The notes under the pieces were generated by a model that did no database searches, had not been told where the DNA came from, and saw nothing but the letters and a program-made list of their open reading frames with translations. DNA of 64,000 nt, from NCBI GenBank assembly GCA_903863255.1, contig CAIPBJ010000114.1, positions 62,001-126,000 of the forward strand, read 5' to 3'. This stretch comes from an uncultured Methylophilaceae bacterium (GTDB lineage: Bacteria; Pseudomonadota; Gammaproteobacteria; Burkholderiales; Methylophilaceae). A program made the translations under genes and the position numbers. The first letter of the stretch is position 1. Each line of letters opens with the position of its first letter. Of this stretch, positions 1,909-57,602 are shown piece after piece.

Positions 1909-2241
1909 TCATTGACCTATCTGTTTACTTACGCCATTCTCTTGTTGATTAAGCGCGGCCTGATCCGCTTTTGTAATATGTCCGCCATCCTGTTTCGCCA
2001 TCGAGCGTTCTTCTGAACGAATGTTCTTGTCTTCCTGATGCAATTGGCTGGCCTCACCTTTTGACATCTCGCCCTCCTTTACTTCGTTGTGGATGCGTTT
2101 GTTTTGATTCGCAAGTCGATCGTTCACCTGGTCACGTCGAGGATGTGACTTTTCCCATTTTGTTTCTGCTGATGCCATTGTTGGCGCCAGTAAAGAAGCC
2201 GTAACGATCAGACCACATATAGTAACTAGACACTTTTTCAT
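1909..2241 (-). CDS. Small secreted hypothetical protein, Lys/Gln/Glu-rich
   Basis: A 110-residue product. It starts with an evident Sec signal peptide (MKK, hydrophobic core, likely cleavage after ASA near residue 25). The mature part is very hydrophilic and probably helical, with the pattern NDRLANQNKRIHNEVKEGEM and, at the end, ALNQQENGVSKQIG. A similar unnamed periplasmic family occurs in Burkholderiales and related groups, and I know of no assigned function. An AGGAGA ribosome-binding site precedes the ATG. The gene stands alone, divergent from the next small gene. Confidence 0.75.
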   Translation of the reverse strand: MKKCLVTICGLIVTASLLAPTMASAETKWEKSHPRRDQVNDRLANQNKRIHNEVKEGEMSKGEASQLHQEDKNIRSEERSMAKQDGGHITKADQAALNQQENGVSKQIGQ

Positions 2242-2406
2242 TGCATTTTCTCCTGATATCTTATAGAAATGGTTTAATCAAGTTAAAGGGTCGCTTCCAT
2301 TTTTCATTTAATCTTGATATAACCTTTAAACGGAATGGACACCAGTAATCCGTCGGTTCATTCTGAAATAATTTTAGAATTTGTGAAATTCAGGGTTGAG
2401 GTTGCA

Positions 2407-2682
2407 ATGTATACCATTATCGTCGAAAAGATCAGCATAGACAGTTTTCAAGTCACGGTAGAGGGAAAAGCGTGCACCCAACACCTCGTCACGGTGCATC
2501 AGGATTACGCAGCCAGGCTGACGCACGGCAAGGTCAGTACTGAAACCCTTGTGGAAAAGTCCTTCGAGTTTCTGCTGGATCGTGAACCTAACACCAGCAT
2601 CCTCCGGACCTTTGATTTAAAGGTGATCTCGCAGTACTTCAGCGAATATGAAACCGAGATCGCCAAATACCTAATCAAATAG
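2407..2682 (+). CDS. Conserved hypothetical protein, 91 aa
   Basis: The start was chosen at the ATG of MYTIIVEKISID because TGAGG lies 5 nt upstream and family members, as I remember them, begin at this strand; an in-frame ATG at 2335 would add 24 residues but has no ribosome-binding site. The product is a small alpha/beta protein ending in a conserved-looking stretch, VEKSFEFLLDREPNTSIL followed by an FDL and YFSEYE segment. I recognise it as a recurrent bacterial family without a known function. Its 3' end overlaps the convergent tpiA by 8 bp. Confidence 0.7.
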   Translation: MYTIIVEKISIDSFQVTVEGKACTQHLVTVHQDYAARLTHGKVSTETLVEKSFEFLLDREPNTSILRTFDLKVISQYFSEYETEIAKYLIK

Positions 2683-3469
2683 TGCTGTTCTCGGACTCAC
2701 TCGAACAGGCGATCTCGCAGATCCTCTTGAAGTCCTCCGGATTAAGCGACGATCGTCCTATCAGCCCTCCGTCGATGTCAGGCATGGAAAAAATAGCCCC
2801 AGCATTGGCAGGCGTGACACTGCCCCCATAGATGATTCTTACTTTTTTAGCGAATTCCGGGTCCCTTTTGGCAATCAACTGCCTGATCAGCACATGCATC
2901 GACTGCGCTTCAGGGGGACTTGCCGTCTGGGAAGCCCCGATGGCCCACACGGGCTCGTAGGCAATCACCGCATTCAGCTTCTCGGCCAATTCGAATGTTT
3001 TTGCATCGAGCCCATCCAGGATCGCGCGCATCTGGTTGGTCACGATCCGATGCGCAATGCCGGCCATGCGTTCTGCCATGGTCTCCCCGACACAAAAGAT
3101 CGGTGTAATGCCGGCATGAAGGGTCTGGGCAAACCGTTTGGCTGCGCTTTGGTTACTGTCATGGGTGACGGCTCGCCTTTCCGAGTGACCGATAATGGCA
3201 AAAGAACAGTCAAAATCGGCGATCATACTGGCCGAGATGGAGGCGGTGAAGGCTCCCTCCTCAAAAGGGCTGACGTTCTGCGCACCCCAGAGGATATTGG
3301 TACCGGACAGTAGCTTCTGTGCCTGGAACAGGTAGGGATAGGGTACGCAGATTGCAAAGTCGCCACCCTTTATATCCCTGAGGTTCTCGATCAGTTTTGT
3401 GATCAAGATCTGGTTCTGTTCAAGACCGCCATACATTTTCCAGTTACCAACGATCAACTTACGACGCAT
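2675..3469 (-). CDS. tpiA: Triosephosphate isomerase
   Basis: Interconverts dihydroxyacetone phosphate and glyceraldehyde 3-phosphate in the cytoplasm. The 264-residue length is slightly above the usual 250. Substrate-binding N9/K11 (GNWKM), catalytic H95 (IIGHSERRAV) and catalytic E172 (AYEPVWAIG) are all present, as is the phosphate-binding IYGGSV loop. It is the last gene of the Calvin-cycle cluster, 57 bp after the aldolase gene and in the same direction. That placement suggests a role in regenerating RuBP rather than the tpiA-secG context common in other proteobacteria. Confidence 0.97.
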   Translation of the reverse strand: MRRKLIVGNWKMYGGLEQNQILITKLIENLRDIKGGDFAICVPYPYLFQAQKLLSGTNILWGAQNVSPFEEGAFTASISASMIADFDCSFAIIGHSERRAVTHDSNQSAAKRFAQTLHAGITPIFCVGETMAERMAGIAHRIVTNQMRAILDGLDAKTFELAEKLNAVIAYEPVWAIGASQTASPPEAQSMHVLIRQLIAKRDPEFAKKVRIIYGGSVTPANAGAIFSMPDIDGGLIGRSSLNPEDFKRICEIACSSESENSTI

Positions 3470-3526
3470 GAATTTTCACCTTAAGAAACCAATTATTACT
3501 ATCCAAACCTTCAAACAAGCCATGAC

Positions 3527-4591
3527 CTATACGATCACTGGACTTAATTCGCCACGCAAATAACGTGCCGCCATCTTGTCGAGATGGATCACCTTGATCT
3601 GACCTGCGCGTCCCGCACTTCCGAACGCCTCGAACCTGTCCTTGCAGACCTGCTTGGCCGCAGCGATCGCGGCCTTGAAGAACACTCGCGGATCGAATTC
3701 CTCGGGGGAATCATGCATTTTCTTTCGCATCGCGGCAGTCATCGACAATCGGATATCGGTGTCGATATTGACCTTACGTACCCCATGCCTGATGCCTTCC
3801 ACAATCTCCGAGACAGGCACACCGTAGGTCTCCTTGATCTGCCCTCCATATGCACGGATCATTTCGAGCCATTCCTGATCCACGCTGGAGGAACCGTGCA
3901 TCACAAGATGGGTGTTGGGAATGCGAGCATGTATCGCCTTGATCCTGTCGATCGAAAGGATATCGCCTGTCGGAGGCCTGCTAAACTTATACGCCCCATG
4001 GCTCGTGCCGATGGCGATCGCCAAGGCATCCACTTGGGTGGCTTTCACGAACTCGGCAGCCTCGTCTGGGTCGGTCAGCAACTGGGATTCGTCAAGCACC
4101 CCATCGGCACCGACACCGTCCTCTTCACCTGCTTTCCCAGTCTCTAGGGAACCCAGGCAACCCAGCTCGCCTTCAACGGACACGCCGACCGAATGAGCCA
4201 CTTCCACCACGCGCCGCGTCACATCGACGTTGTATTCATAAGTCGAAGGCGTCTTTCCGTCGGCCAACAGGGATCCATCCATCATGACACTGGAGAAACC
4301 GCTTCTGATGGCCACCTGGCAAACGGCGGGAGAGGCTCCGTGATCCTGATGCATGCAAATCGGGATATGCGGATACTGTTCGATCGCGGCTTCAACAAGC
4401 TTACGCAGGAATGCCTCACCGGCATACCCTCTTGCCCCTGCCGAAGCCTGCAAGATAACGGGGCTGTCCACTTCATCGGCCGCCTGCAATATGGAATGGA
4501 TCTGTTCCATGTTGTTGATGTTGAACGCCGGCAGTGCATAGCTGTTTTCTGCCGCGTGATCGAGTAACTGCCTGAGTGATATCAATGCCAT
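3527..4591 (-). CDS. cbbA: Class II fructose-bisphosphate aldolase, Calvin-cycle type
   Basis: Condenses glyceraldehyde 3-phosphate with DHAP to fructose 1,6-bisphosphate, and by family also makes sedoheptulose 1,7-bisphosphate. The 354-residue zinc enzyme shows D83 (catalytic) and H84 (metal) in CMHQDHG, further metal histidines in GTSHG (H198) and VMHGSSS (H232), and the SVEGELG segment. The length and the [13 protein letters not shown] start match the Calvin-cycle subtype. It is 14 bp downstream of cbbP and 57 bp upstream of tpiA. Confidence 0.96.
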
Positions 4592-4605
4592 AGGTCTTTC
4601 CTTTT

Positions 4606-5478
4606 TTAATGCCGATCTCTCTGATTCATCAATCGGAGGATCATCGGCGTGAATATCAATTGCATGGCAAGGCCCATCTTCCCGCCGGGAACAACCAGCG
4701 TATTGGGCCGCGTCATCATGGAGTCATGGAGCATGCTGAGCAAGTAAGGGAAATCGATCCCCCTTGGCTCCGCGAACCTTATGACCACCATGCTTTCGTC
4801 TGCCGTCGGTATATCGTTCGCGATAAAGGGATTCGATGTATCCACGGTAGGCACCCGCTGGAAATTCACATGCGTACGCGAAAACTGCGGACAGATGTAA
4901 TTCACGTAGTCCGGCATGCGGCGAAGGATGATGTCCGTCACGGCCTCCTTTGAGTAGCCCCGTATCTTCTGGTCACGATGCAGTTTCTGGATCCACTCCA
5001 GGTTGATGATTGGAACCACGCCAACCAGAAGATCCACGTGCTTTGCCACATCGGCATCCGGACCGACGTAGCCCCCATGGAGACCCTCGTAGAAAAGCAC
5101 TTCTGCTCCAGGGATGCTGTCCTGCCAGGGCGTCATCGTTCCTGCCTTCTGTTTGTAAGGCACCCCCTCCTCGTCAGTATGGATGTACTTGCGGACCTTG
5201 CATTTACCGGTCTTGCCAAAATCCTTGAACGTCTCCGAGAGTTCAAGCAGCAAATTCGCCTTTGGATTGAAATGGCTGAAATGGCTTCCAGGAATCTCAC
5301 GGTGCTTGGCCAGTTCGGCATCCATCTCTTTACGCTCGAAGCGATGCATGGAGTCCCCTTCTATGGTCTGTGCCCTGATGCCTTCACGTCTGAAAATATG
5401 TTGAAAACTGTTCATCACCGACGTGGTTCCTGCACCTGAGGAACCGGTTATGGCGATGACTGGATAATTTTTAGACAT
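4606..5478 (-). CDS. cbbP: Phosphoribulokinase
   Basis: Phosphorylates ribulose 5-phosphate with ATP to RuBP, the CO2 acceptor. The 290-residue length fits the bacterial octameric (proteobacterial) type. The P-loop GSSGAGTTS is at residues 12-20, with IEGDSMHRF (D42 as the presumed base) and the Walker-B-like LFYEGLHGG around 128-136. A kinase step unique to the Calvin cycle, it fixes the identity of the cluster. It lies 14 bp after cbbF and 14 bp before cbbA, so it is surely co-transcribed. Confidence 0.97.
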
Positions 5479-45930: not shown

Positions 45931-46986
45931 TTAACGAAAACCCCTTGGCTGGTAAGGAGCGGCCAAAGGCTCTCCGACAAACAGCCCTTGCGCCGGCCAT
46001 GCGACGCTCTTCCAGTAAGCCTCGATAGCCGTCTCCCCAGAAAGATAATGTGTCAGGAGAACGAGTGGATTGGGAAACTTCTGCCAGTAGTTGCAAGGTT
46101 CCGTTACGGTTCCATAACTGGCAGTCGCACCGGCATCCAGCCATTTTAGAACGGTCATTTGTCCTGTTCCCATCAGATCGCCGCCGGCAGAGGTCAGGTG
46201 ATCTGCCAGGGCACCTGGCAGGAACGTCAGCGTATCCAGATTGGGGACATTGACTGTCCCGGTCAGGTAGAACATGATGTCATGCTTATCGGCGATACTG
46301 TCAGCCTCAACCGGGATGAGATCAATCATTTTGGAAGGGATCTTCTTCTCAACCTTTGGATAGAACGCTTCTCTCGGAGCACTTCTTGTCTTATCTGATG
46401 TTTTTACAAAGTAAGCACTTGCTTCGTTCAGCTTGAACGAACTTAGAACACCCCGATCGATGAGCGCCTTTGCCTTATCGACGGATTCGATTGGCAACAG
46501 CATGGAAAGGCGCATTCCATAATCCTTTAACGGACGATTGGACGGACTATCGAAATAGGGGCTTTGCTTACCGACGCCACACAAATTGGAACACTGATCC
46601 GGATCAAAGCCCATCGTCATAGCCGAAGTGATGGAATTGCATTCCACTGCGTACGGTGTGGTCCAGACCATGACGATGACTTGAATTTTAGAGTCCAGTG
46701 AATTGATCACCTGCTCTTTCATCTTAGTGAAAACAGGAAGGCTCAGCTTAGGCTCGCCTTTAGGCAAAGTCACATTGACTAAATTTTCCGGAGGGATATT
46801 TCTTGCGCGGATATAGTAATTGCCAACCTCTACGCTCTGCGGATCGGACTGGTTGACAACGACAGCGACGTTTTCTGGTCCAATCAGGCTGTTTGCCTCG
46901 GCAATCCTCAATGAAGAGGATGCTATCAGTAAGACGACGATTAAGTTCCTGAACAGGATATCCAACCGAATGATGTCAGATAACAC
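45931..46986 (-). CDS. TIGR03790-family exported protein (exosortase-associated)
   Basis: The protein matches the family defined by TIGR03790, of unknown function and described as occurring in genomes with exosortases. Features: a hydrophobic segment (FRNLIVVLLIASSS) then NSLIGPENVAVVVNQSDPQS, YYIRARNIPPENLVNV, a TTPYAVECNSITSAMTMGFD segment and GALADHLTSAGG near the end. No start has a ribosome-binding site; I chose the GTG at 46986, 8 nt beyond the galE stop. ATGs at 47022 and 47028 lie inside galE, and a TTG at 46965 is also possible. Confidence 0.75.
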   Translation of the reverse strand: MLSDIIRLDILFRNLIVVLLIASSSLRIAEANSLIGPENVAVVVNQSDPQSVEVGNYYIRARNIPPENLVNVTLPKGEPKLSLPVFTKMKEQVINSLDSKIQVIVMVWTTPYAVECNSITSAMTMGFDPDQCSNLCGVGKQSPYFDSPSNRPLKDYGMRLSMLLPIESVDKAKALIDRGVLSSFKLNEASAYFVKTSDKTRSAPREAFYPKVEKKIPSKMIDLIPVEADSIADKHDIMFYLTGTVNVPNLDTLTFLPGALADHLTSAGGDLMGTGQMTVLKWLDAGATASYGTVTEPCNYWQKFPNPLVLLTHYLSGETAIEAYWKSVAWPAQGLFVGEPLAAPYQPRGFR

Positions 46987-46994
46987 GAATTGAA

Positions 46995-47972
46995 CTATCC
47001 ATTCGCGACTTTCAATTCCCATGACCATGCGTGCTGAATGATGTTTGCAAGATCGGTATAAACGGGCTTCCAACCCAATTCCTGAGCAGCAAGCCTGGCA
47101 TCAGCCACCAGGCGCGCAGGATCACCGTCCCTTCTAGCGCCTTCAATCACGTTCACGGATTTTCCCGTTACGCGCTCAGCGGTCTCGATAACTTGTTGCA
47201 CCGAAAACCCTGCACCATTTCCCAAGTTGTACCTGCGACTGATACCCGACTTGATCAGGTTAGAAAGAGCCAGCAAATGAGCCGAGCACAAATCGACGAT
47301 ATGGATATAGTCACGAATACAGGTCCCATCAGGCGTATCGTAATCGCGTCCAAAAACACAGATATTTTCGCGTCTGCCGGAGATAGCTTGTAAAACCAGG
47401 GGGATCAAATGGGTCTCCGGCTCATGACGCTCGCCTAACAAGCCGGACGGATCGGCTCCGGCAGCATTAAAATAACGCAGGCAAACCGATTTCAAACCAT
47501 AAGCCCGTTCATAATCAGACAGAACCTGCTCGACCATCCATTTAGATCGCCCATAGGGATTTACTGGGTTTTTGGGATGCGATTCATCAATCGGCACGTA
47601 CTCGGGCTCACCGAATACTGCAGCGGTCGATGAGAATATAAAATGGTTGATTCCATGCTTAACCATTGCATTCATTAGATTCAGCGTGTTCGTGAAGTTA
47701 TTCTGATAATACTTGTCTGGCGACCTGACCGATTCACCTACCTGGATATAGGACGCAAAATGCATCACGGCATCAGGCTGATGCTGGCGAATGACGGCAT
47801 CGATTGCCCTTTCGTCAGCCAAATCACCTAATACGAACTCACCGCCGAGAACAGCATCCCTGAATCCAGAAGAAAGGTTATCGAAGGTGACAACCTGATT
47901 TCCCGAATCCAACAGCATTTTCACCATATGGGAACCAATGTATCCTGCTCCCCCAACCACTAACACTTTCAT
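46995..47972 (-). CDS. galE: UDP-glucose 4-epimerase
   Basis: Interconverts UDP-glucose and UDP-galactose (or related sugars) for polysaccharide synthesis. The 325-residue SDR protein has GGAGYIGSHM near the N-terminus, and the catalytic YGRSK (Y-x3-K) with an upstream Ser in FSSTAAVFG. The ATG at 47972 is preferred to one two codons upstream. It is in line with galU and the glycosyltransferases. Confidence 0.94.
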   Translation of the reverse strand: MKVLVVGGAGYIGSHMVKMLLDSGNQVVTFDNLSSGFRDAVLGGEFVLGDLADERAIDAVIRQHQPDAVMHFASYIQVGESVRSPDKYYQNNFTNTLNLMNAMVKHGINHFIFSSTAAVFGEPEYVPIDESHPKNPVNPYGRSKWMVEQVLSDYERAYGLKSVCLRYFNAAGADPSGLLGERHEPETHLIPLVLQAISGRRENICVFGRDYDTPDGTCIRDYIHIVDLCSAHLLALSNLIKSGISRRYNLGNGAGFSVQQVIETAERVTGKSVNVIEGARRDGDPARLVADARLAAQELGWKPVYTDLANIIQHAWSWELKVANG

Positions 47973-47992
47973 AACCATTCTTGATATCCCAA

Positions 47993-49096
47993 CTAGTTGC
48001 TCTCGATAAGATAAGACATTGAGTTCCAGTGAAACACTTTTTTCAGATCCGGATTGATCTTTTCGAGTTTCAAGGTCCGGTTATTTTCTTCAAGGTTCTT
48101 CTTAAGCATCATGACCATTCCAAAGAAACCCGGACTTAAATATTCTGCTTCATAAAGATCCAGAATGATATCGACGCCTTCTTTGCTCGCCTGTCTGAAA
48201 GTAGCACGAATATCGGAACTGATCGGATCCATGAATACACCCTTGGCAATGAGCTTGTATCCGGATTCGCATTTCTCCAACTGAAGCGATTCAGAGATTG
48301 CCGATTTTTCCTTTAATTTTTTTCGATTCATTGCGAGCCACAGAGCATGAGGGGCTATTTTTGATACTAAAAACCTTAGGAAGAACTTGCCATCGTTCCA
48401 ATAACGCTTCCATAAATGCGGCTCCTCCTTGATCCTCCATGCCCATTCCATTCCCATCTTCTGGAACCATTCGGGGGCGCGCTTAAGCCGATTGGCCTGG
48501 AAGTTGATGACCGCCCCTAGATGGCTGACGAGAGGCAATTTGATTCTTGACTGATTTTTTACAATCCATGCCTGTCCCTTTTTCGCCCCAAGCGCAACCA
48601 CAAGAAAATCGGCACCGCTTGCATTGATATTATCGATGATTTCCTGGGAACTCATATCCTCCAGCGAACCAAACCCTGGTGAAAAGTAACCCACACAATT
48701 CAAACCTCCTCCAGAGGCATTGATGAGTTTACTTGCCTGCTCCGCCACGCCGTCCGGTCCCCCGAAGAAATAGACCGTCATCTTTCTCCGCCATTCTGTC
48801 CTGAAAGCCTCGAACATCGAAGACCCAGCCACCCTTTCAGGAACCGGGATACCCAGCATCTTGGCCATCCAAACGATTGGCATCCCGTCGGCTATAACGA
48901 TGTCGCTATGAATGACGGAATTGCGGAAGTCATCGTCATCTTGAGCAAACGCAAGAAAATTCAGGTTCGGTGTAGAAAGAAAGCAGGAAATCTGCTTGAA
49001 TTTTGCATCCCGAAGCAGCGACCTGGTTTTGGACATATCGACGGCATCAAAAGGTAAGCCGCAGATACAATATACATCTCGTTCAAAATCATCCAT
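47993..49096 (-). CDS. WecG/TagA/CpsF glycosyltransferase fused to a STAS-like domain
   Basis: Residues about 1-255 match the GT26 family (STPNLNFLAFAQ, IVIADGMPIVWMAKMLG with catalytic-type Asp, VYFFGGPDGVAEQ, RAPEWFQKMGMEW), which adds a sugar to a lipid-linked precursor. The usual GxPKQE motif reads GAKKGQAW. Residues about 270-366 look like a STAS domain (VDIILDLYEAEYLSPGFFGM, with a Ser in the phospho-Ser position, NRTLKLEKINPDLKKVF). The start ATG at 49096 follows the GT2 stop by 8 nt; an ATG at 49129 would overlap it. Confidence 0.85.
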   Translation of the reverse strand: MDDFERDVYCICGLPFDAVDMSKTRSLLRDAKFKQISCFLSTPNLNFLAFAQDDDDFRNSVIHSDIVIADGMPIVWMAKMLGIPVPERVAGSSMFEAFRTEWRRKMTVYFFGGPDGVAEQASKLINASGGGLNCVGYFSPGFGSLEDMSSQEIIDNINASGADFLVVALGAKKGQAWIVKNQSRIKLPLVSHLGAVINFQANRLKRAPEWFQKMGMEWAWRIKEEPHLWKRYWNDGKFFLRFLVSKIAPHALWLAMNRKKLKEKSAISESLQLEKCESGYKLIAKGVFMDPISSDIRATFRQASKEGVDIILDLYEAEYLSPGFFGMVMMLKKNLEENNRTLKLEKINPDLKKVFHWNSMSYLIESN

Positions 49097-49104
49097 CAAG
49101 AATT

Positions 49105-50286
49105 CTAATCCCTTTCTGTTCTCACCCAAGTTTTTTGTCTCTTAAACACGAACTTAAAATAACTTGGGATTTTGGCAATGATATAGAACGGAATCAATAA
49201 AAAAGTTTTAATCGGAATAATCGACCTTCCCCATCCATACCATGCCAAAAACACGGCAAGGATTAAAAGGATGTCTTCTACCAGGACCAAAGACAATGAA
49301 AAAGAGGATAAGCCGAACATGCTTGCTACCCCGCACACTAAGGTAAGGACTGACAGCAAGAGAAGCAGAAGTGCCAAGGGGGGGACAAGCAGATCGACTG
49401 CCAAAGCGAACAAATCCTTATTTCGCTTGAGAATGGATTGGACAATCATACTCGGCGCCTCGTTGAGAATCACTCCTAAATGGCCATGTTCCCATCTTGT
49501 ACGCTGTCCAGTCAAGGCTTCTTCCGTAGAAGGGAACAAACTGGTCACTTTGGCATCGGGAAAGAACAAGGAAGGCTTGCCCAACCGGCAAAGATCCAAG
49601 CCTAACTGAAGATCTTCAACAATATTCCCATTCGCCAACTTAGCCTGGCAAATGAGCTCCCAAGGGAATGCCATCCCGGAACCCATCAGTTGGCAGGGTA
49701 AATTCAAGGAAGAATAGCCAAGTGGCCTAACGAGATTCTTTAGAAGCCAGGCAAATTCGGATATCAAGGTCTTGATGCCGGCACCCATTGGCGATTGCAT
49801 TAAATAAAGGGCCTGGACCGGCCTGCCCTCAAGGTGCGATCGCTCCGCCAACTTCCTGATTGAGCCTTTATCCACCAAGCAATCCGCATCCACGATTACC
49901 AGCACGTCCGGTGGGCACGCACTTAGATGTTTCACGCCAAAGTCCAAGGCGAACCCCTTGCCTCTATCGATCGCGTTTTCCCTCTCGATCACTTCAGCAG
50001 GAGGGAACTGCCTGACGATGCTCGCCGTAGAATCCGAACAGTTATCGGCGACCACCAATATCTGATCGCCCGGTTTAACTTCAGGTAAAAGGGATTCCAT
50101 GGTCTTTGCTATGCCTGATTCTTCATTATGCGCTGGGATTAGAATTGCAATCCGTATTTCGTCCACGGAATTATAAGGAACCTTTGTTACAGAAAAAAAC
50201 GCAAGGACAACCTGAACAAACAATACCAGAACAGGGACAAACAAAAGCAACACGATCAGGCATAAAAGATAGGCAATCAGACTCAT
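49105..50286 (-). CDS. Membrane glycosyltransferase family 2
   Basis: The 393-residue processive-type GT2 has an N-terminal membrane segment, the catalytic domain with ILIPAHNEES, DAD (133-135), ED (224-225) and QRTRW (261-265), and 3-4 C-terminal membrane segments. It likely transfers sugars onto the undecaprenyl-linked unit at the inner membrane. It overlaps the GT4 gene by 4 bp. Confidence 0.9.
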   Translation of the reverse strand: MSLIAYLLCLIVLLLFVPVLVLFVQVVLAFFSVTKVPYNSVDEIRIAILIPAHNEESGIAKTMESLLPEVKPGDQILVVADNCSDSTASIVRQFPPAEVIERENAIDRGKGFALDFGVKHLSACPPDVLVIVDADCLVDKGSIRKLAERSHLEGRPVQALYLMQSPMGAGIKTLISEFAWLLKNLVRPLGYSSLNLPCQLMGSGMAFPWELICQAKLANGNIVEDLQLGLDLCRLGKPSLFFPDAKVTSLFPSTEEALTGQRTRWEHGHLGVILNEAPSMIVQSILKRNKDLFALAVDLLVPPLALLLLLLSVLTLVCGVASMFGLSSFSLSLVLVEDILLILAVFLAWYGWGRSIIPIKTFLLIPFYIIAKIPSYFKFVFKRQKTWVRTERD

Positions 50287-51497
50287 TCAAACACCTCATT
50301 GAATAATCCCGCTAATTTTCCGGCTTCCTTATCTATAGAATGATTCTCCAGAACACGATCGTAAGCTGCCATTCCCATTTCCCCCAGGCGGAGTGGGGAA
50401 GCCAATATTGCCTCCTCCATGGCGACGGACAAAGAATCGATGCAACCTGCCGGAATAAGCCAGCCATTTTCATGGTGGATGACCAATTCAGGAATCCCGG
50501 CGATATACGTAGTGATGACCGGGCGACGGAGCGCCATAGCCTCCATGATGACCACGGGAAGCCCCTCAGCGAAGCTCGCCAAGACCATTGCACGTGACTC
50601 AAGTATCTCCTCCCGTACCTGATTGCTGCTAATCCAACCTGTGATCCGAATTTTTTCGGTTAGTTTGAATTCCTTTATCATCCTTTCAATCTCGGGACGC
50701 ATCTCTCCATCACCAGCCAATACCAATTCGAAATCTATGCCTTTTTCATGAATTTGTTTTGCAGCCTGAACGAGAAGCAACTGTCCCTTTTGCTCACAAA
50801 GCCTTCCCACGCATACCAGTCTTGGTCTTTCTGGAACAGGCGTCAAGGGAATATCATAAAATGACTTTTCCAGTCCACAATGCACAACCTTGATCTTTGA
50901 CCAGGCATGGTATTCGACCCAGCGAAATAATTGACTGCGGCCAAATGAACTGATGGCGACAACAAAAGCCGAATGCTTCACTTTCTCGCCAAGCTTGATG
51001 AATGCAGGCTTATCGAATTCTTCTGGCCCATGCACAGTGAAACTGTAAGATGGTCCGCCAAGTGCTTTCGACAACATGACGACCTCGGTGGAGTTTGTGC
51101 CAAAATGGGCATGGATATGGGAAACATCCATTTTTCTTAGCCATCGCAGCACACGACAAGCTTCGGCCAAATAGATCAGATGGTAAGGCCAGGGGCGATC
51201 AGCATTTTTACTCAACTGAAGCGCAAGGATGAGCGTCTTGATGAAGGCAAAAGGCGAAGTCATAAACACGATGAAAAAAGAACCCAACAAACCAGGGATA
51301 CCTTCTTTCAGGACATAAACGGTTCGTTTCCGTTCCTGGATGTCCTCCTCATCAACCAACTCCCCATCCCAACCCCGGAGTGCTATGCGCGCAACCGATA
51401 AGCCCTGTTTTTCAAGCGCAATGATTTCTCTTCTAATAAAACTATGGCTCACCTTTGGGTACTGATTGATGAAATACGCTATTCTTTTTGAATTCAC
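50283..51497 (-). CDS. Glycosyltransferase family 4
   Basis: The 404-residue GT-B protein resembles colanic-acid type enzymes, with IAYFINQYPKVSHSFIRREI at the start, DVSHIHAHFGTNS, RLVCVGRLCEQKGQLLLVQA, and the ESRAMVLASFAEGLPVVIME acidic signature (E-x7-E). Cytoplasmic, it probably adds a sugar to the EPS repeat unit. Confidence 0.92.
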   Translation of the reverse strand: MNSKRIAYFINQYPKVSHSFIRREIIALEKQGLSVARIALRGWDGELVDEEDIQERKRTVYVLKEGIPGLLGSFFIVFMTSPFAFIKTLILALQLSKNADRPWPYHLIYLAEACRVLRWLRKMDVSHIHAHFGTNSTEVVMLSKALGGPSYSFTVHGPEEFDKPAFIKLGEKVKHSAFVVAISSFGRSQLFRWVEYHAWSKIKVVHCGLEKSFYDIPLTPVPERPRLVCVGRLCEQKGQLLLVQAAKQIHEKGIDFELVLAGDGEMRPEIERMIKEFKLTEKIRITGWISSNQVREEILESRAMVLASFAEGLPVVIMEAMALRRPVITTYIAGIPELVIHHENGWLIPAGCIDSLSVAMEEAILASPLRLGEMGMAAYDRVLENHSIDKEAGKLAGLFNEVFE

Positions 51498-51517: not shown

Positions 51518-52363
51518 CTATTCGCTAGAATGGGCAAATTCACCCTTGTATTCAATCTTTGCACTTTTTCTAAGCGTCCGTATATTATTATCCACCATAG
51601 TGGCACCTTTTGTATTAAGAAAATAGTCGGTTATGGATGGGGTCGCTTCTTCCAATGACTGGCTATCAGGATAGCTGTTCTCCAACCATATCAGATGCCA
51701 TTCCTTAGGCGCATGCCACAATATCGTTTGAAGTCGATCCTCACTTGTCAGCCTTGCTAAAAGATCCGATGGCACCTGCTCAGAGAAGCGGCTATAAAGT
51801 GTCCTTGAATAGCCGACATGATGACTCCCCAGCCAAGCTTCAATCGCCTCCCTGGAGCGGAGTTTTTGAAGGGCTTCCTCACCCGGAATGGATGGATCAT
51901 CGAAGCTGAAGTCCTGGAAGATGAAAAGTTTTCTTTTTGAAAACAGTTCTGGATGATCTTCATAGTATTTTTTTATTTCGGAATCAGTTGGGGGCTCAGT
52001 ACTGGATGAAATTTTAGTCAAATAGAATGTCGAGATGATTTCGCGTCTTGAAGACTCGATCGCGGACATGACCTCCGGTGTGTGATCCAACCCTTCTTTA
52101 CTCGCTTCATCAATAGCGAGCTGCTGACATATGAGCTTTTCAAGTATTTCTCGACGTTTTGACGGGAGAGTATCCACGGAGACGTTTTTGGTATTCTCCA
52201 ATGCCTGATTGACCTGATGCAGGGAAATCTCGACATCGTTTACTCTTGCAGCCACCTGATTGGGCATGGCCGGCTCATTCGATTTATGACATCCGGCCAC
52301 TCCAATCAACAATGCGACCCAAACAAAGCTGTTACATTTGAATTTATTTGATAAGGAAAACAT
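51518..52363 (-). CDS. epsD: EpsD-like peptidyl-prolyl isomerase lipoprotein
   Basis: The 281-residue precursor has a lipobox (LIGVAGC) and SurA/PrsA-like organisation: an N-terminal helical region (ARVNDVEISLHQVNQAL) and a parvulin-like part (PPTDSEIKKYYEDHPELF, KEWHLIWLENSYPD) that looks degenerate. The EpsD family accompanies exosortase-type exopolysaccharide clusters; a role in folding of secreted EPS machinery is presumed. Confidence 0.8.
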   Translation of the reverse strand: MFSLSNKFKCNSFVWVALLIGVAGCHKSNEPAMPNQVAARVNDVEISLHQVNQALENTKNVSVDTLPSKRREILEKLICQQLAIDEASKEGLDHTPEVMSAIESSRREIISTFYLTKISSSTEPPTDSEIKKYYEDHPELFSKRKLFIFQDFSFDDPSIPGEEALQKLRSREAIEAWLGSHHVGYSRTLYSRFSEQVPSDLLARLTSEDRLQTILWHAPKEWHLIWLENSYPDSQSLEEATPSITDYFLNTKGATMVDNNIRTLRKSAKIEYKGEFAHSSE

Positions 52364-52534: not shown

Positions 52535-53044
52535 TCAGATAGGTGCTCCATAGACACCTGTTGGCAAGAATCTTTCACAAGTATTTCTCAATCTGGATGT
52601 CATCAACTGGAGAAGGATCAAAAGAAATTTGTTACCCAATCTAGGCATCTGAACAAGAATGTCATTCAATGACTCTCGTTTGAAGATGGCAAAGTCCGTA
52701 GGTACGGTAGTGATACAACTTGCGTATCGTGGGTTGCCATCGATCATAGACATTTCACCGAGTGTCGCGCCGACGCCAATCTCGGCAATCAGCTTCTCAC
52801 CCTGTCCTGGCATGCGCTTCCTCACCTCGACTCCTCCACTTAGAAGCAAAAGGAGGTAATCTCCATCGTCGCCTTCCTGCAATAGCGTATAGTTCCGTGG
52901 GGCAGCATAGCATTCCATGTAGTGACAAAGTACTCTTACCTCATCAACACTGAAACCTTCGAAAAGTTTAATATGATTGATTATTTCCAATATATCGTCG
53001 ACGAACTTGTCGGCCATGCCCAGGTTTTCTATATCGTTATACAT
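52535..53044 (-). CDS. Stand-alone cyclic-nucleotide-binding protein
   Basis: The 169-residue protein is almost entirely one cNMP-binding (CAP effector) domain: LFEGFSVDEVRVLCHYM, LQEGDDGDYLLLLLSG and the phosphate-binding cassette GEMSMIDGNPRYASCITT. No helix-turn-helix or enzyme domain follows. It is the first minus-strand gene of the polysaccharide set, 171 bp upstream of epsD (nothing seen in that gap), so it may regulate through a partner protein. M10 is an alternative start. Confidence 0.85.
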   Translation of the reverse strand: MYNDIENLGMADKFVDDILEIINHIKLFEGFSVDEVRVLCHYMECYAAPRNYTLLQEGDDGDYLLLLLSGGVEVRKRMPGQGEKLIAEIGVGATLGEMSMIDGNPRYASCITTVPTDFAIFKRESLNDILVQMPRLGNKFLLILLQLMTSRLRNTCERFLPTGVYGAPI

Positions 53045-53361: not shown

Positions 53362-54162
53362 TTGAGTTCAATATTGAATTTTGATTTAAATGAAGAAGAG
53401 TTCGGTCATTTCACAGATTTAATGACTGAATCGTTAAGGGTGAAAACTCACTTTGAGCTATTCTTATGGCTTCAGGGGAAGCTGCAAATATTCTTACCGC
53501 ACGATGTCATGATTGCCGCTTGGGGTGATTTCTCTCTGGGCCTGATCTATTTTGATGTCGTGTCGCCTTTACCTGGACTAAGAACCAGTAAGATTCCAAA
53601 CGAGAAACTTATCCCTTTGCTAAGAAGATTGTTTAGCTACTGGTGTGAACATTCCCGAACGCCCTACACCCTGAATTTTGAAAATGGCATATTCCATGAA
53701 ACGGACTTGGATGATGAACATCTCACCTCTGCATTCAAGGAAATGAAACATGCGCTTGTTCACGCCATCAAGGATTGCAGGGGTCGACACGACTGCCTCT
53801 ACGTTCTAATCGGCAGCTCGCATAGCATGCCGCCTAAATCTCGCAAAATGCTTGAGATCCTTCTGCCCTATATTGACTGCTCGCTGAGGCAACTCGAACC
53901 GTTACCTGATCAGGTCCCTGAGCAAGTCACGCAGAAAGAGGAATTGGAAGAAGAGATAATCGGCACGCTGTCATTGCGAGAAAAGGAAATCATGGATTGG
54001 GTGAAGAATGGGAAAACCAATCAGGAAATTGGCATGATTTTAGACATCAGTTCATTCACGGTAAAGAATCACCTTCAACGTATTTTTAAGAAGCTTGATG
54101 TACTCAATCGTGCTCAAGCGGTCACAAAATTCAGGCAAATGTATCCAAAAGATAAAGAATGA
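53362..54162 (+). CDS. epsA: EpsA-type LuxR-family transcription regulator
   Basis: The 266-residue protein has an N-terminal domain of about 190 residues without a recognised ligand fold and a C-terminal LuxR helix-turn-helix (LSLREKEIMDWVKNGKTNQE, SSFTVKNHLQRIFKKL). The family EpsA is tied to exosortase EPS loci. The best start is a TTG (53362) with only a weak GGT-rich site upstream; the next Met is residue 20. Its stop overlaps the next gene (ATGA). Confidence 0.82.
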   Translation: MSSILNFDLNEEEFGHFTDLMTESLRVKTHFELFLWLQGKLQIFLPHDVMIAAWGDFSLGLIYFDVVSPLPGLRTSKIPNEKLIPLLRRLFSYWCEHSRTPYTLNFENGIFHETDLDDEHLTSAFKEMKHALVHAIKDCRGRHDCLYVLIGSSHSMPPKSRKMLEILLPYIDCSLRQLEPLPDQVPEQVTQKEELEEEIIGTLSLREKEIMDWVKNGKTNQEIGMILDISSFTVKNHLQRIFKKLDVLNRAQAVTKFRQMYPKDKE

Positions 54163-55565
54163 TTCCGAATCTACAACCCCCCAAAAGAATAGCTGGCCTA
54201 GCCTTCTCGAGAGACCACATACTCTATATTGCAGAGGCCCTCCTTGACCCTTTGATCATGATACTGACGCTTTGGGGAGTCGCTTTGTATTCAGAAGGGG
54301 AACTCGCCCCGTTCTACCTCTTGTTTTCAGTCATCATTTTTTCGATCACGTTTCCCAGCACGCCAAAAATTCATTTGCCTGCGCTGAAATGCATCGAGAA
54401 GATCCTGGTCACCTGGGTCATACTTGCTAGTCTTCTGTTCATTTTTGGCGCATCGACCAGATACATACTCCTGTTCTCTCACAAGACCATCATGTTGTGG
54501 CTAGGCCTAACCCCGCTATTCCAGATTCTTGCAGTTTTTGCACTCAAGAAACTGGCACCCAAACTGATCCAGCTTCAGGGACCGGTCAAACGAGCTATTG
54601 TAGTTGGCATGAACCCTCAAGGCCTGGAACTGGCAAACAGGCTTTCTCGCAGCCAATACGACTCAGCAGAACTGCTTGGATTTTTTGATGACAGGACCCC
54701 TGAACGCATTCCGCCAGACATGAACTTCCCCATGCTTGGGGTGCTTGATGAAGTAGCAGAATACATCAAGAAAAATCTCGTTCATGTGATCTACCTCTCG
54801 CTGCCCATGGCAAGCCAACCTCGAATTCTAAAATTACTGGATGAATTAAAGGATACGACAGCCTCAATCTATTTTGTTCCAGATATCTTCATGACGGACT
54901 TGATTCAGGGAAGAATGGACCAGGTAGACGGGATTCCGGTCGTTGCCGTAAGAGAATCCCCATTTACAGGCATGGATGGCTTAGTCAAACGTTTTACAGA
55001 CGTCGTTCTGTCCATCATCATCCTGACTTTGATATCACCCATACTCCTTGTGGTTGCCATAGGGGTCAAGGTGACGTCGCCAGGACCGATCATCTTCAAG
55101 CAAAGAAGATACGGTCTGGACGGACAGGAAATATTTGTGTACAAGTTTCGATCCATGACCGTTTGCGAGGACGGCGCAACCGTTGTTCAGGCAACCAAAC
55201 AAGATCAGAGGATTACCCCCCTGGGTGGTTTTTTACGCAAGTCCTCACTGGATGAACTTCCGCAATTCTTTAACGTGATTCAAGGCAGGATGAGCATCGT
55301 TGGACCTCGCCCGCACGCAGTCTCCCACAATGAAATGTACCGAAAACTCATCAAAGGCTATATGATCCGTCACAAAGTCAAACCTGGCATCACCGGCTGG
55401 GCTCAAGTCAATGGACTAAGGGGCGAGACAGAAACATTGGACAAGATGAAGGCCCGTATCGATTACGACATTGACTACTTGCGAAACTGGAGCCCTAGAC
55501 TTGATTTCTATATTATCTTCAAAACAATCTGGGTCGTATTCAAGGGACAAAAAGGGGCCTATTAA
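54159..55565 (+). CDS. epsB: Undecaprenyl-phosphate glycosylphosphotransferase (EPS priming enzyme)
   Basis: Transfers the first sugar-1-phosphate onto undecaprenyl phosphate. The 468-residue protein has 4-5 N-terminal membrane segments, a central CoA-binding-like domain (KRAIVVGMNPQGLELANRL), a membrane re-entrant helix and the catalytic bacterial-transferase domain (SPGPIIFKQRRYG, YKFRSMTV, SSLDELPQFFNV, GRMSIVGPRPHA, KPGITGWAQVNG). It overlaps epsA by 4 bp, so regulator and priming enzyme are co-expressed. Confidence 0.9.
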   Translation: MIPNLQPPKRIAGLAFSRDHILYIAEALLDPLIMILTLWGVALYSEGELAPFYLLFSVIIFSITFPSTPKIHLPALKCIEKILVTWVILASLLFIFGASTRYILLFSHKTIMLWLGLTPLFQILAVFALKKLAPKLIQLQGPVKRAIVVGMNPQGLELANRLSRSQYDSAELLGFFDDRTPERIPPDMNFPMLGVLDEVAEYIKKNLVHVIYLSLPMASQPRILKLLDELKDTTASIYFVPDIFMTDLIQGRMDQVDGIPVVAVRESPFTGMDGLVKRFTDVVLSIIILTLISPILLVVAIGVKVTSPGPIIFKQRRYGLDGQEIFVYKFRSMTVCEDGATVVQATKQDQRITPLGGFLRKSSLDELPQFFNVIQGRMSIVGPRPHAVSHNEMYRKLIKGYMIRHKVKPGITGWAQVNGLRGETETLDKMKARIDYDIDYLRNWSPRLDFYIIFKTIWVVFKGQKGAY

Positions 55566-55586: not shown

Positions 55587-56990
55587 TTAGCCTAGATGAA
55601 GCCTCATGACATATTCGATCAAATGGTGAACACCTGTACCAACCAGGTAGCCAAGCGGTAAAACTGGCAGGACCATCAGCTCTTTCTTTATGTCCAGCAT
55701 GTTGAATTGTTTCTTGTAGTAAAAGATCAGTGGCAAGGAAGCCAGCTTACTCCCCCCAATCACCCATAACGCACCATTAATCCCGTCGAACCGGTAGGCA
55801 ATTGGCAAGAGGGTATAGATGACGACGATATTGATAATGATAAGTGGTGTTAACAGCCTAGGCTTACCCATGGCGACAAAGAACTGGTTCAAGACCTCAT
55901 AACGAATCGAAAAGAAACCAATTGCCAGTATCTGCAAGATGAATCCAGCCTGCATGTACCTGCCATCGTACAAAATCTGAATGATCAGACCGGCCGTTGC
56001 CATTAGAAACCCCATGCTGAACAATGAAGTAATGTCGACGGGCAATCTTATCCTGTAGTAACTCCGTTTAACATTGGCGAAATCCTTATTCCGTATGACT
56101 TCACTTAATACTGGCAGGGCCACTCCGTTCAGGACTTTCATAACGATTTCCTGAACAGCGCTCCACATGAAATAGGCTATCGTATAAAGCCCTAGCTGTT
56201 TGGTATCGATTAGCCCGCCAAGAACGATACGATCACCACTCATTGAAACGAAACCGAGAATCGAACTTAGGAACACCCATTTACCAAAATGAAATATCTC
56301 CGCAAATGCCTCCTTATCCCATGCAAACCAATTCGATTCGCCTTTGATCAGCGTATAGCTTAGGATGGTATTGACAATGGTTCCCATCACGGAACCAGCA
56401 GCCAATGCCCAAACGGAACGGTCGATCTGAACCCAGATCATCATAAAAATGATGCCTGAAACTTGTGAGCCAAGATTAATTAACACCTTATCTCTTAAGA
56501 TCAGGTTTCGATTCGATAACGATATACGAACCGAACGAAAACCATCGATGGGTGACTCAAGCGATATGAAAGCGATAATCCAGGGTAAAATCGGATCGGA
56601 ATAAACGCTGCCAGAAGGCCACCAGTGCATGTAATTGATAAAATAGATGCCCAGTGCCAGGAGACAAGCCATAAGGTATACCAGGAACCCTCTGGCAACC
56701 TGAACCGTCCATATGGTATCCAGGAAAAGCTTGTCCTCGCGGTGGGATTGTATAATGTTCTGGTTCAGGCCAAGGTCAGAAAATAAATGGAGGCCAAACA
56801 TGACCAAATTAGCCATTGCCATCAGCCCAAACATTTCCGGAGCCAGCAACCTCGTCATGATCAAATTACTGGCCAGTCGGATTGCCTGACTGACAAAGTG
56901 ACCCCCTAGTACCCAAATACTGGCATTCAACGCTCGTTTTTTTAAAGAAATGATGGTTCTCTTTTCAGCTTGTTCTGATTTTAATGACAC
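55587..56990 (-). CDS. Wzx-like oligosaccharide flippase
   Basis: The 467-residue membrane protein has 12-14 hydrophobic segments and the N-terminal LNASIWVLGGHFVSQAIRLA followed by SNLIMTRLLAPEMFGLMA typical of MOP-superfamily polysaccharide flippases. It likely flips the lipid-linked EPS unit. It converges on epsB with a 21-bp gap. Confidence 0.88.
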   Translation of the reverse strand: MSLKSEQAEKRTIISLKKRALNASIWVLGGHFVSQAIRLASNLIMTRLLAPEMFGLMAMANLVMFGLHLFSDLGLNQNIIQSHREDKLFLDTIWTVQVARGFLVYLMACLLALGIYFINYMHWWPSGSVYSDPILPWIIAFISLESPIDGFRSVRISLSNRNLILRDKVLINLGSQVSGIIFMMIWVQIDRSVWALAAGSVMGTIVNTILSYTLIKGESNWFAWDKEAFAEIFHFGKWVFLSSILGFVSMSGDRIVLGGLIDTKQLGLYTIAYFMWSAVQEIVMKVLNGVALPVLSEVIRNKDFANVKRSYYRIRLPVDITSLFSMGFLMATAGLIIQILYDGRYMQAGFILQILAIGFFSIRYEVLNQFFVAMGKPRLLTPLIIINIVVIYTLLPIAYRFDGINGALWVIGGSKLASLPLIFYYKKQFNMLDIKKELMVLPVLPLGYLVGTGVHHLIEYVMRLHLG

Positions 56991-57212: not shown

Positions 57213-57602
57213 TTACATTCGACTTCTGCGACGGGCTGCAAATACAATCAACCCTAATCCGGATAACATCATGGCATAAGATTGTGTCTCTGGAACACTT
57301 GAGACCACTTCGTCCTGTGTCGAATTGACCGAGGAAGGAACAACCGTGCCCTTCTCATTCACCTTGTAATGAGAAACCGCAGCGGATTTCTGAGTCATGT
57401 CAGAGAAAGATGGTTGATCAGACATCGCCAACTTGGCTGTTTTGCTGAAATTCGAGAACTCGGATGAGATCCTTGACTGGCTTGCTTGTTCGAATGTATT
57501 GGAATCATTGATTGATTGAAAATTGGCATAGGCATTAGCATCGACTGATAATGAAAATAATGTCATTGCCAATACAAGATTGCTTTTAACTAGAATTCCC
57601 AT
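57213..57602 (-). CDS. Small PEP-CTERM (exosortase-sorted) protein
   Basis: The 129-residue precursor has an N-terminal signal peptide (cleavage near ANA, residue 24), a Ser/Asn/Thr-rich mature region and a C-terminal tripartite signal: VPET (103-106), a hydrophobic segment LSGLGLIVFA and the basic RRRSR tail. The usual Pro after PE is Thr here. It is probably cut and anchored or released by an exosortase, which is not encoded in this window. A GAGG ribosome-binding site is present. Confidence 0.85.
   Translation of the reverse strand: MGILVKSNLVLAMTLFSLSVDANAYANFQSINDSNTFEQASQSRISSEFSNFSKTAKLAMSDQPSFSDMTQKSAAVSHYKVNEKGTVVPSSVNSTQDEVVSSVPETQSYAMMLSGLGLIVFAARRRSRM

What the first reader, a model, noticed from the sequence alone, without database searches (positions are those of the whole stretch)
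47993..49096. Glycosyltransferase of the TagA/WecG family carrying a STAS-like domain
Seen: residues 1-255 are GT26-like, then a 95-residue tail has the STAS pattern beta-helix-beta with LDLYEAEYLSPGFFG, placing a Ser where anti-sigma-antagonist proteins are phosphorylated. Known: STAS domains mediate partner switching or ligand sensing. Inferred: polysaccharide transfer could be gated by protein-protein or phospho-signalling. The GxPKQE motif is also altered to GAKKGQA, which suggests a distinct subfamily.
Basis: partly seen in the sequence, partly recalled or inferred. Interest (0 to 1): 0.65.

Follow-up and report, generated by a model that had tools for sequence, protein, structure and literature searches.

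The report
Sugar-transfer enzyme with STAS regulatory tail
This bacterial gene joins an enzyme that builds surface sugar polymers to a STAS domain, a protein-docking module best known from stress signalling; the join is real and shared by relatives, but the serine that would make it a phosphorylation switch is a proline here.

Summary
The gene is real. It lies on the minus strand (47993-49096) and encodes 367 residues. Residues 1-232 are a WecG/TagA/CpsF (GT26) glycosyltransferase, 226-268 form one long helix, and 269-367 are a true STAS domain. The full-length model has pLDDT 92; the tail aligns to RsbV with Z about 14, and all 18 homologous tails match Pfam STAS_2.

The proposed phospho-switch is not supported for this protein. 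Its Ser321 sits in the Asp57 column of SpoIIAA; the phosphorylated-Ser column is Pro322. Across 18 fusions that column is Ser in 7 and otherwise Pro, Ala, Tyr, Phe or Cys. No RsbW-type kinase or SpoIIE phosphatase lies on the window's contig.

The altered GxPKQE motif marks a clade: all 17 GT26 proteins with [K/R]GQ carry STAS, and none of 69 unfused ones has it. The general base (D70) is kept while donor-site residues change, so an active enzyme with altered substrate preference is likely. The gene occupies an EpsE-EpsU-GT26 slot of a PEP-CTERM-type exopolysaccharide locus that close relatives often fill with ordinary, unfused GT26.

Best reading: a membrane-bound sugar transferase with a phosphorylation-independent STAS docking or allosteric tail. 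The partner is unknown. No paper describing this fusion was found.

The parts
47993..49096 (-). GT26::STAS fusion gene, 367 aa (a TTG start at 49129 would overlap the upstream gene; ATG at 49096 preferred, matching the MDDF N-terminus of relatives)
48401..49096 (-). GT26 catalytic domain, residues 1-232; Thr42, Asn44, Asp70, Arg88, Arg221 and Arg231 kept; Gly174, Gln175 and Asn198 replace TagA Gln167, Glu168 and Asp191
48293..48421 (-). single long helix, residues 226-268, continuing the TagA-type C-terminal appendage and leading into the STAS domain; probably membrane-associated (inferred)
47996..48292 (-). STAS domain, residues 269-367; Ser321-Pro322 lie in the SpoIIAA Asp57-Ser58 columns
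49105..50286 (-). EpsU-like GT2 glycosyltransferase directly upstream (8-bp gap)
50283..51497 (-). EpsE-like GT4 glycosyltransferase
51518..52363 (-). EpsD-family peptidyl-prolyl isomerase (TIGR02925, over cut-off)
52535..53044 (-). cyclic-nucleotide-binding-domain protein
53362..54162 (+). XrtB/PEP-CTERM-associated LuxR-type regulator EpsA (TIGR03020, over cut-off)
54159..55565 (+). undecaprenyl-phosphate glucose phosphotransferase, WcaJ type (TIGR03023, over cut-off)
55587..56990 (-). Wzx-type flippase
46995..47978 (-). galE, directly downstream
45931..47073 (-). TIGR03790-family protein (over cut-off)

Best explanation
A membrane-peripheral GT26 glycosyltransferase of an exopolysaccharide (Wzx/Wzy-type, PEP-CTERM-associated) locus that adds a sugar to an undecaprenyl-PP-linked acceptor, in a subfamily whose donor-site residues have changed. 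Its C-terminal appendage helix is extended into a STAS domain that most likely acts as a docking or allosteric module. It would bind a cytoplasmic partner, or another copy of itself, next to the membrane and so place or modulate the enzyme, without the Ser-phosphorylation cycle of SpoIIAA and RsbV. Shown here: both folds (by model and profile); kept and lost active-site residues; the linkage of motif and STAS; the locus; the lost phospho-Ser; purifying selection on the tail in one pair. Inferred: catalytic activity, membrane association, substrate identity, the docking role. Unknown: the partner.
For: The STAS fold is robust. T37, N39, D65, R83, R214 and R224 of TagA are kept in the window (roles from PMC6493773), which argues against a dead enzyme. 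Q167, E168, D191 and R221, residues near the UDP-sugar, are changed, which argues for altered donor preference. All 17 KGQ-type GT26 carry STAS and 0 of 69 unfused have KGQ; the KGQ clade has 100/100 support. The fusion is spread over seven family-level groups of the order. The tail is under constraint but evolves fast: omega 0.13 for the pair L020-L021; 75% identity in GT against 36% in STAS for window-L019. The phospho column is not conserved and there is no dedicated kinase near. Precedent for STAS as a stabilising or regulatory docking subunit without proven phosphorylation: MlaB on MlaF (PMC7367683).
Against: No partner was identified: comparing gene content of 13 fused and 15 unfused loci gave no gene found in most fused loci and absent from unfused ones. 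The EpsU neighbour also sits next to unfused GT26 (10 of 22 fused and 17 of 68 scored as unfused, one of the latter being the frame-split fusion L057), so STAS is not needed to work in that cassette. Seven of 18 tails do keep Ser in the phospho column, so some relatives could be switched. Omega rests on one close pair; most other pairs are saturated. The models are monomers built from shallow alignments (16 and 6 sequences).
Confidence: 0.5

Rival explanations
1. Partner-switch gate: a Ser/Thr kinase and a SpoIIE-type phosphatase control the STAS tail and so the transferase, as SypE controls SypA in Vibrio fischeri.
For: The window genome does hold a complete SpoIIE phosphatase / RsbW kinase / STAS module (L104). 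Seven of 18 fusions keep Ser in the phospho column. Two f51 genomes have a REC-PAS-SpoIIE-HATPase protein roughly 12 kb from the fusion in a polysaccharide locus. SypA/SypE shows that a STAS protein can gate polysaccharide-dependent biofilm (PMC4517449).
Against: In the window protein the site is Pro322. The genome's module is on another contig with its own STAS partner, and the f51 module also has its own STAS gene directly upstream while the f51 fusions have Pro in that column. Near-complete fusion genomes such as G037, G054 and G035 have no small RsbW-type kinase among the listed hits.
Confidence: 0.12
2. Ligand-sensing tail: the STAS domain binds a nucleotide, lipid or acyl carrier and allosterically tunes the enzyme.
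For: The STAS fold. That some STAS domains bind nucleotides or acyl carrier protein is from general knowledge, not tested here.
Against: Few positions are invariant in the 18 tails: only one glycine is invariant and a Gly and a Leu nearly so. No conserved pocket motif was seen.
Confidence: 0.15
3. Self-assembly tail: STAS promotes oligomers or stability and has no regulatory role.
For: TagA is proposed to toggle between inactive dimers and an active membrane-bound monomer through its C-terminal appendage (PMC6493773), which is exactly where the STAS domain is attached. MlaB is required for the stability of MlaF (PMC7367683).
Against: Not testable with monomer predictions. Ordinary GT26 fills the same slot without a tail.
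Confidence: 0.18
4. Passenger or decaying tail: the STAS fusion has little function now.
For: Fast divergence of the tail compared with the GT. L003 has lost the conserved end of its tail.
Against: The KGQ-STAS linkage is unbroken in all 17 sampled members, omega is 0.13 in the one well-measured pair, and the fold model is confident.
Confidence: 0.05

Closest known systems
TagA/TarA (GT26, Thermoanaerobacter italicus; PDB 5wb4, 5wfg, 7mpk, 7n41)
   Same: Same GT-E fold (Z about 25), catalytic Asp65 and Thr37 kept, C-terminal appendage region kept
   Different: Q167, E168, D191 and R221 replaced; appendage runs into a STAS domain; not a teichoic-acid locus
Myxococcus xanthus EpsA, EpsU and EpsE (exopolysaccharide glycosyltransferases)
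   Same: Three consecutive window genes have these three NCBIfam models as top hits; EpsU, EpsE and EpsA are GTs of a Wzx/Wzy pathway (PMC7484181)
   Different: All three score far below the curated equivalog cut-offs; the EpsA model is 265 positions long, too short for a STAS tail
SpoIIAA/RsbV anti-sigma antagonists and standalone STAS proteins of related bacteria
   Same: Same fold (RsbV Z 14); standalone STAS proteins of the order match the tail profile at E about 1e-9 to 1e-13
   Different: Those keep the Asp-Ser phosphorylation dyad; the window has Ser-Pro, and the domain is fused to an enzyme
SypA/SypE of Vibrio fischeri
   Same: A STAS domain linked to production of a biofilm polysaccharide (PMC4517449)
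   Different: SypA is a separate protein, phosphorylated on Ser56 by SypE; its target is unknown
MlaB (MlaFEDB phospholipid transporter)
   Same: STAS domain that docks on a membrane-system enzyme; phosphorylation not demonstrated (PMC7367683)
   Different: A separate subunit binding an ABC ATPase; still has Thr52 in the phospho column

Membership tests
GT26 (WecG/TagA/CpsF) | Sequence family and GT-E fold | tested here: met
   PF03808 E 5e-48, TIGR00696 92.4 bits over cut-off 69, TagA Z 25
GT26 (WecG/TagA/CpsF) | Catalytic base Asp65 and Thr37 of TagA | tested here: met
   D70 and T42, invariant in 9 fusions
TagA/TarA equivalog within GT26 | GxPKQE motif (Gln167-Glu168) and Arg221 | tested here: not met
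   GAKKGQ and no Arg at the Arg221 position; motif shared by the whole KGQ clade. These are substrate-site features, so membership of the wider family stands but not of the TagA/TarA equivalog (85.8 against 350 bits)
GT26 (WecG/TagA/CpsF) | Glycosyl transfer to a polyprenyl-PP acceptor | not testable with these tools
   Needs biochemistry
STAS domain | STAS fold and profile match | tested here: met
   18/18 tails match STAS_2; Z 13.9-14.5 to RsbV; the window tail alone is below Pfam's gathering score (24.2 against 29.2 bits)
Phospho-regulated anti-sigma antagonist (SpoIIAA/RsbV type) | Ser/Thr at the position of Ser58 | tested here: not met
   Pro322; not conserved in relatives
Phospho-regulated anti-sigma antagonist (SpoIIAA/RsbV type) | Cognate kinase and phosphatase encoded nearby | tested here: not met
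   No PF13581 or PF07228 match on the window's contig C114; a module with its own STAS lies on C139
Wzx/Wzy exopolysaccharide locus, PEP-CTERM/XrtB associated | EpsA regulator, EpsD PPIase, WcaJ-type initiator, Wzx flippase | tested here: met
   TIGR03020, TIGR02925 and TIGR03023 over cut-off; flippase match below cut-off
Wzx/Wzy exopolysaccharide locus, PEP-CTERM/XrtB associated | Exosortase, Wzy polymerase and co-polymerase genes | not tested
   Not looked for in the window or the rest of the genome

The most novel reading that the evidence does not exclude
The [K/R]GQ clade is an uncharacterised GT26 subfamily with changed donor chemistry that is obligately coupled in cis to a STAS domain. 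The domain acts as a phosphorylation-independent regulatory dock on the membrane-bound enzyme, so that a STAS module controls polysaccharide assembly directly at a glycosyltransferase. STAS may have been acquired by GT26 more than once (KGQ clade; PKQE clade in Acidobacteria and Lentisphaerae), though a single origin is not rejected (AU p 0.14).
Probability: 0.25. Interest if true: 0.6.

Novelty: new variant of a known kind. Interest (0 to 1): 0.42.

Why it matters
How STAS proteins such as SypA control polysaccharide production was an open question in PMC4517449. Here a STAS domain is covalently attached to a polysaccharide glycosyltransferase, which names a candidate target outright and makes the question testable by deleting the tail. 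The family also offers a natural comparison: in one bacterial family the same operon slot holds either a STAS-fused KGQ enzyme or an ordinary one.

Tried and rejected
2) EpsU or EpsE as the specific STAS partner: EpsU adjacency is also found for unfused GT26, and EpsE occurs in most unfused loci too, so neither is specific.
3) A partner gene found only in fused loci: none in most of them. A WcaJ-like initiator within about 9 kb in 6/13 fused against 0/15 unfused loci (Fisher p 0.005) is not corrected for phylogeny (three of the six come from one genus), so it is only a hint.
4) Standalone STAS relatives sitting beside a separate GT26 (Rosetta-stone test): none in 12 loci.
5) A SpoIIE phosphatase beside the Lentisphaerae fusions: a first reading of a sequence search, retracted because Pfam shows a hybrid histidine kinase.
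6) Independent fusion origins: single origin not rejected.
7) The tail alone against PDB by single-sequence search: nothing significant; the profile was needed.
8) Literature: no paper joining STAS with WecG/CpsF glycosyltransferases in the held library. Subscription papers are not held, so absence is weak.
9) The JBC paper on TagA substrate recognition was not held.

Full report
Observation. The open reading frame lies on the minus strand, 49096 to 47993, 367 residues starting MDDFERDVYC. The plus strand at these coordinates is full of stops. Close relatives share the same N-terminus. The window is contig C114, 62001-126000, of an assembly of 2.43 Mb in 143 contigs, and the gene is single-copy there.

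Domains. Pfam gives WecG/TagA/CpsF at residues 64-232 (E 5e-48) and a weak STAS_2 match at 294-356, which becomes E 3.8e-5 when the tail is scanned alone, still below the curated cut-off. The tail is nevertheless a STAS domain. All 18 homologous tails match STAS_2, the best at 2e-13. A profile of the 18 finds TM1442, RsbV and SpoIIAA in the PDB at 5e-10 to 1e-6. AlphaFold gives a confident full-length model (pLDDT 92, pTM 0.89) whose residues 8-202 match TagA (Z 25) and 268-367 match RsbV (Z 13.9). The tail folded alone gives the same answer (Z 14.5). [quoted passage not shown]

The phosphorylation site. The alignment is gapless around the motif: TM1442 YMDSAGLG, family consensus yldsallG, window YLSPGFFG. 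The window Ser is residue 321 and lies in the Asp57 column; the phospho column is Pro322. Over 18 fusions the phospho column reads Ser 7, Pro 5, Ala 3, Tyr 1, Phe 1, Cys 1. The four complete relatives at 59-62% identity have Phe, Ser, Tyr and Pro.

Kinases and phosphatases. RsbW-type (PF13581) and SpoIIE-type (PF07228) searches of the genome find nothing on the window's contig. On contig C139 there is a complete module: a 763-residue SpoIIE-containing protein, a 154-residue RsbW-like kinase and a 114-residue STAS protein that has a Ser at the phospho position. Among 14 other fusion-bearing genomes only G120 has a comparable small kinase. The others show weaker hits in long ORFs, mostly of the size of histidine kinases, plus two SpoIIE-HATPase-type proteins in f51. 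The f51 module has its own STAS gene directly upstream.

Active site. Aligned to TagA, Thr37, Asn39, Asp65, Arg83, Arg214 and Arg224 correspond to T42, N44, D70, R88, R221 and R231. Gln167, Glu168 and Asp191 are replaced by G174, Q175 and N198, and no Arg stands at the Arg221 position. The paper proposes Asp65 as the base and finds Thr37, Asp65 and Arg221 important by mutation; Gln167 and Glu168 lie in the sugar pocket and Asp191 contacts the ribose. Keeping the base while changing the donor site suggests an active enzyme with a different donor or binding mode (inference).

Family. Every GT26 sequence fetched with a [K/R]GQ motif (17) has a STAS tail; none of 69 unfused ones has the motif. The clade has 100/100 support. 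A second, PKQE-type group of fusions (Acidobacteria, Lentisphaerae with two STAS copies, and one genome of the same class) falls elsewhere, but a single origin is not rejected (p 0.14). Complete fusions occur in 6 of 150 sampled genomes of the own family and in 9 of 300 of the order (a tenth is split in two frames), in seven family-level groups. In 369 genomes sampled across the class one further fusion appears, of the PKQE type.

Evolution of the tail. Window against L019: 75% identity in residues 1-232, 36% in the STAS domain. In the one clearly unsaturated pair (L020-L021) omega is 0.05 for GT and 0.13 for STAS. The tail is constrained but diverges quickly.

Surroundings. The locus holds EpsU-like GT2, EpsE-like GT4, EpsD PPIase, a cyclic-nucleotide-binding protein, the XrtB/PEP-CTERM regulator EpsA, a WcaJ-type initiator, a Wzx-type flippase, galE and a TIGR03790 protein. 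EpsE-EpsU-fusion recurs in many relatives. The same slot next to EpsU is filled by ordinary GT26 in other members of the family (17 of 68 scored as unfused, one of them the frame-split fusion L057), and no partner gene marks most fused loci while being absent from unfused ones. This weakens the idea that STAS binds EpsU or EpsE specifically.

Mechanism. The best-supported reading is a membrane-peripheral transferase whose appendage helix carries a STAS module that docks a partner or another copy, independent of phosphorylation. The analogues are MlaB on MlaF for docking and SypA for control of a polysaccharide. The partner and the enzymatic activity remain to be shown.

Novelty. Both domains are known and the combination was not found described in the held library. 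I class it as a new variant of a known kind.

Noticed in passing
L104 (G000:C139:4000-12000), 2041-5145: Complete partner-switch module in the window's genome: SpoIIE-containing protein (763 aa), RsbW-like kinase (154 aa) and STAS protein (114 aa), not linked to the eps locus.
   Followed up: partly
L136 3081-5967 and L137 3819-6707: Polysaccharide locus of two f51 genomes encodes a REC-PAS-SpoIIE-HATPase protein with a STAS gene directly upstream, resembling SypE/SypA, roughly 12 kb from a GT26-STAS gene.
   Followed up: partly
L007, L008, L009 (7857-9428): Lentisphaerae GT26 with two STAS domains, both keeping Ser in the phospho column; in L007 exosortase-like and EpsI-like ORFs (named by eye) lie directly upstream.
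   Followed up: partly
L103 7995-9100 (G405): GT26-STAS gene split into two overlapping frames (196 and 187 aa); could be a sequencing error or a real frameshift.
   Followed up: no
L003 8784-9071: The tail of the Rhodoferax lacus fusion lacks the conserved C-terminal helix and ends differently, as if frameshifted.
   Followed up: no
window 45931-47073 and 46995-47978: The TIGR03790 ORF (TTG start) overlaps galE by 79 bases; its true start is probably further in.
   Followed up: no
window 57213-57602: Small protein with a C-terminal PEP-CTERM motif next to the flippase gene, a likely exosortase substrate.
   Followed up: no
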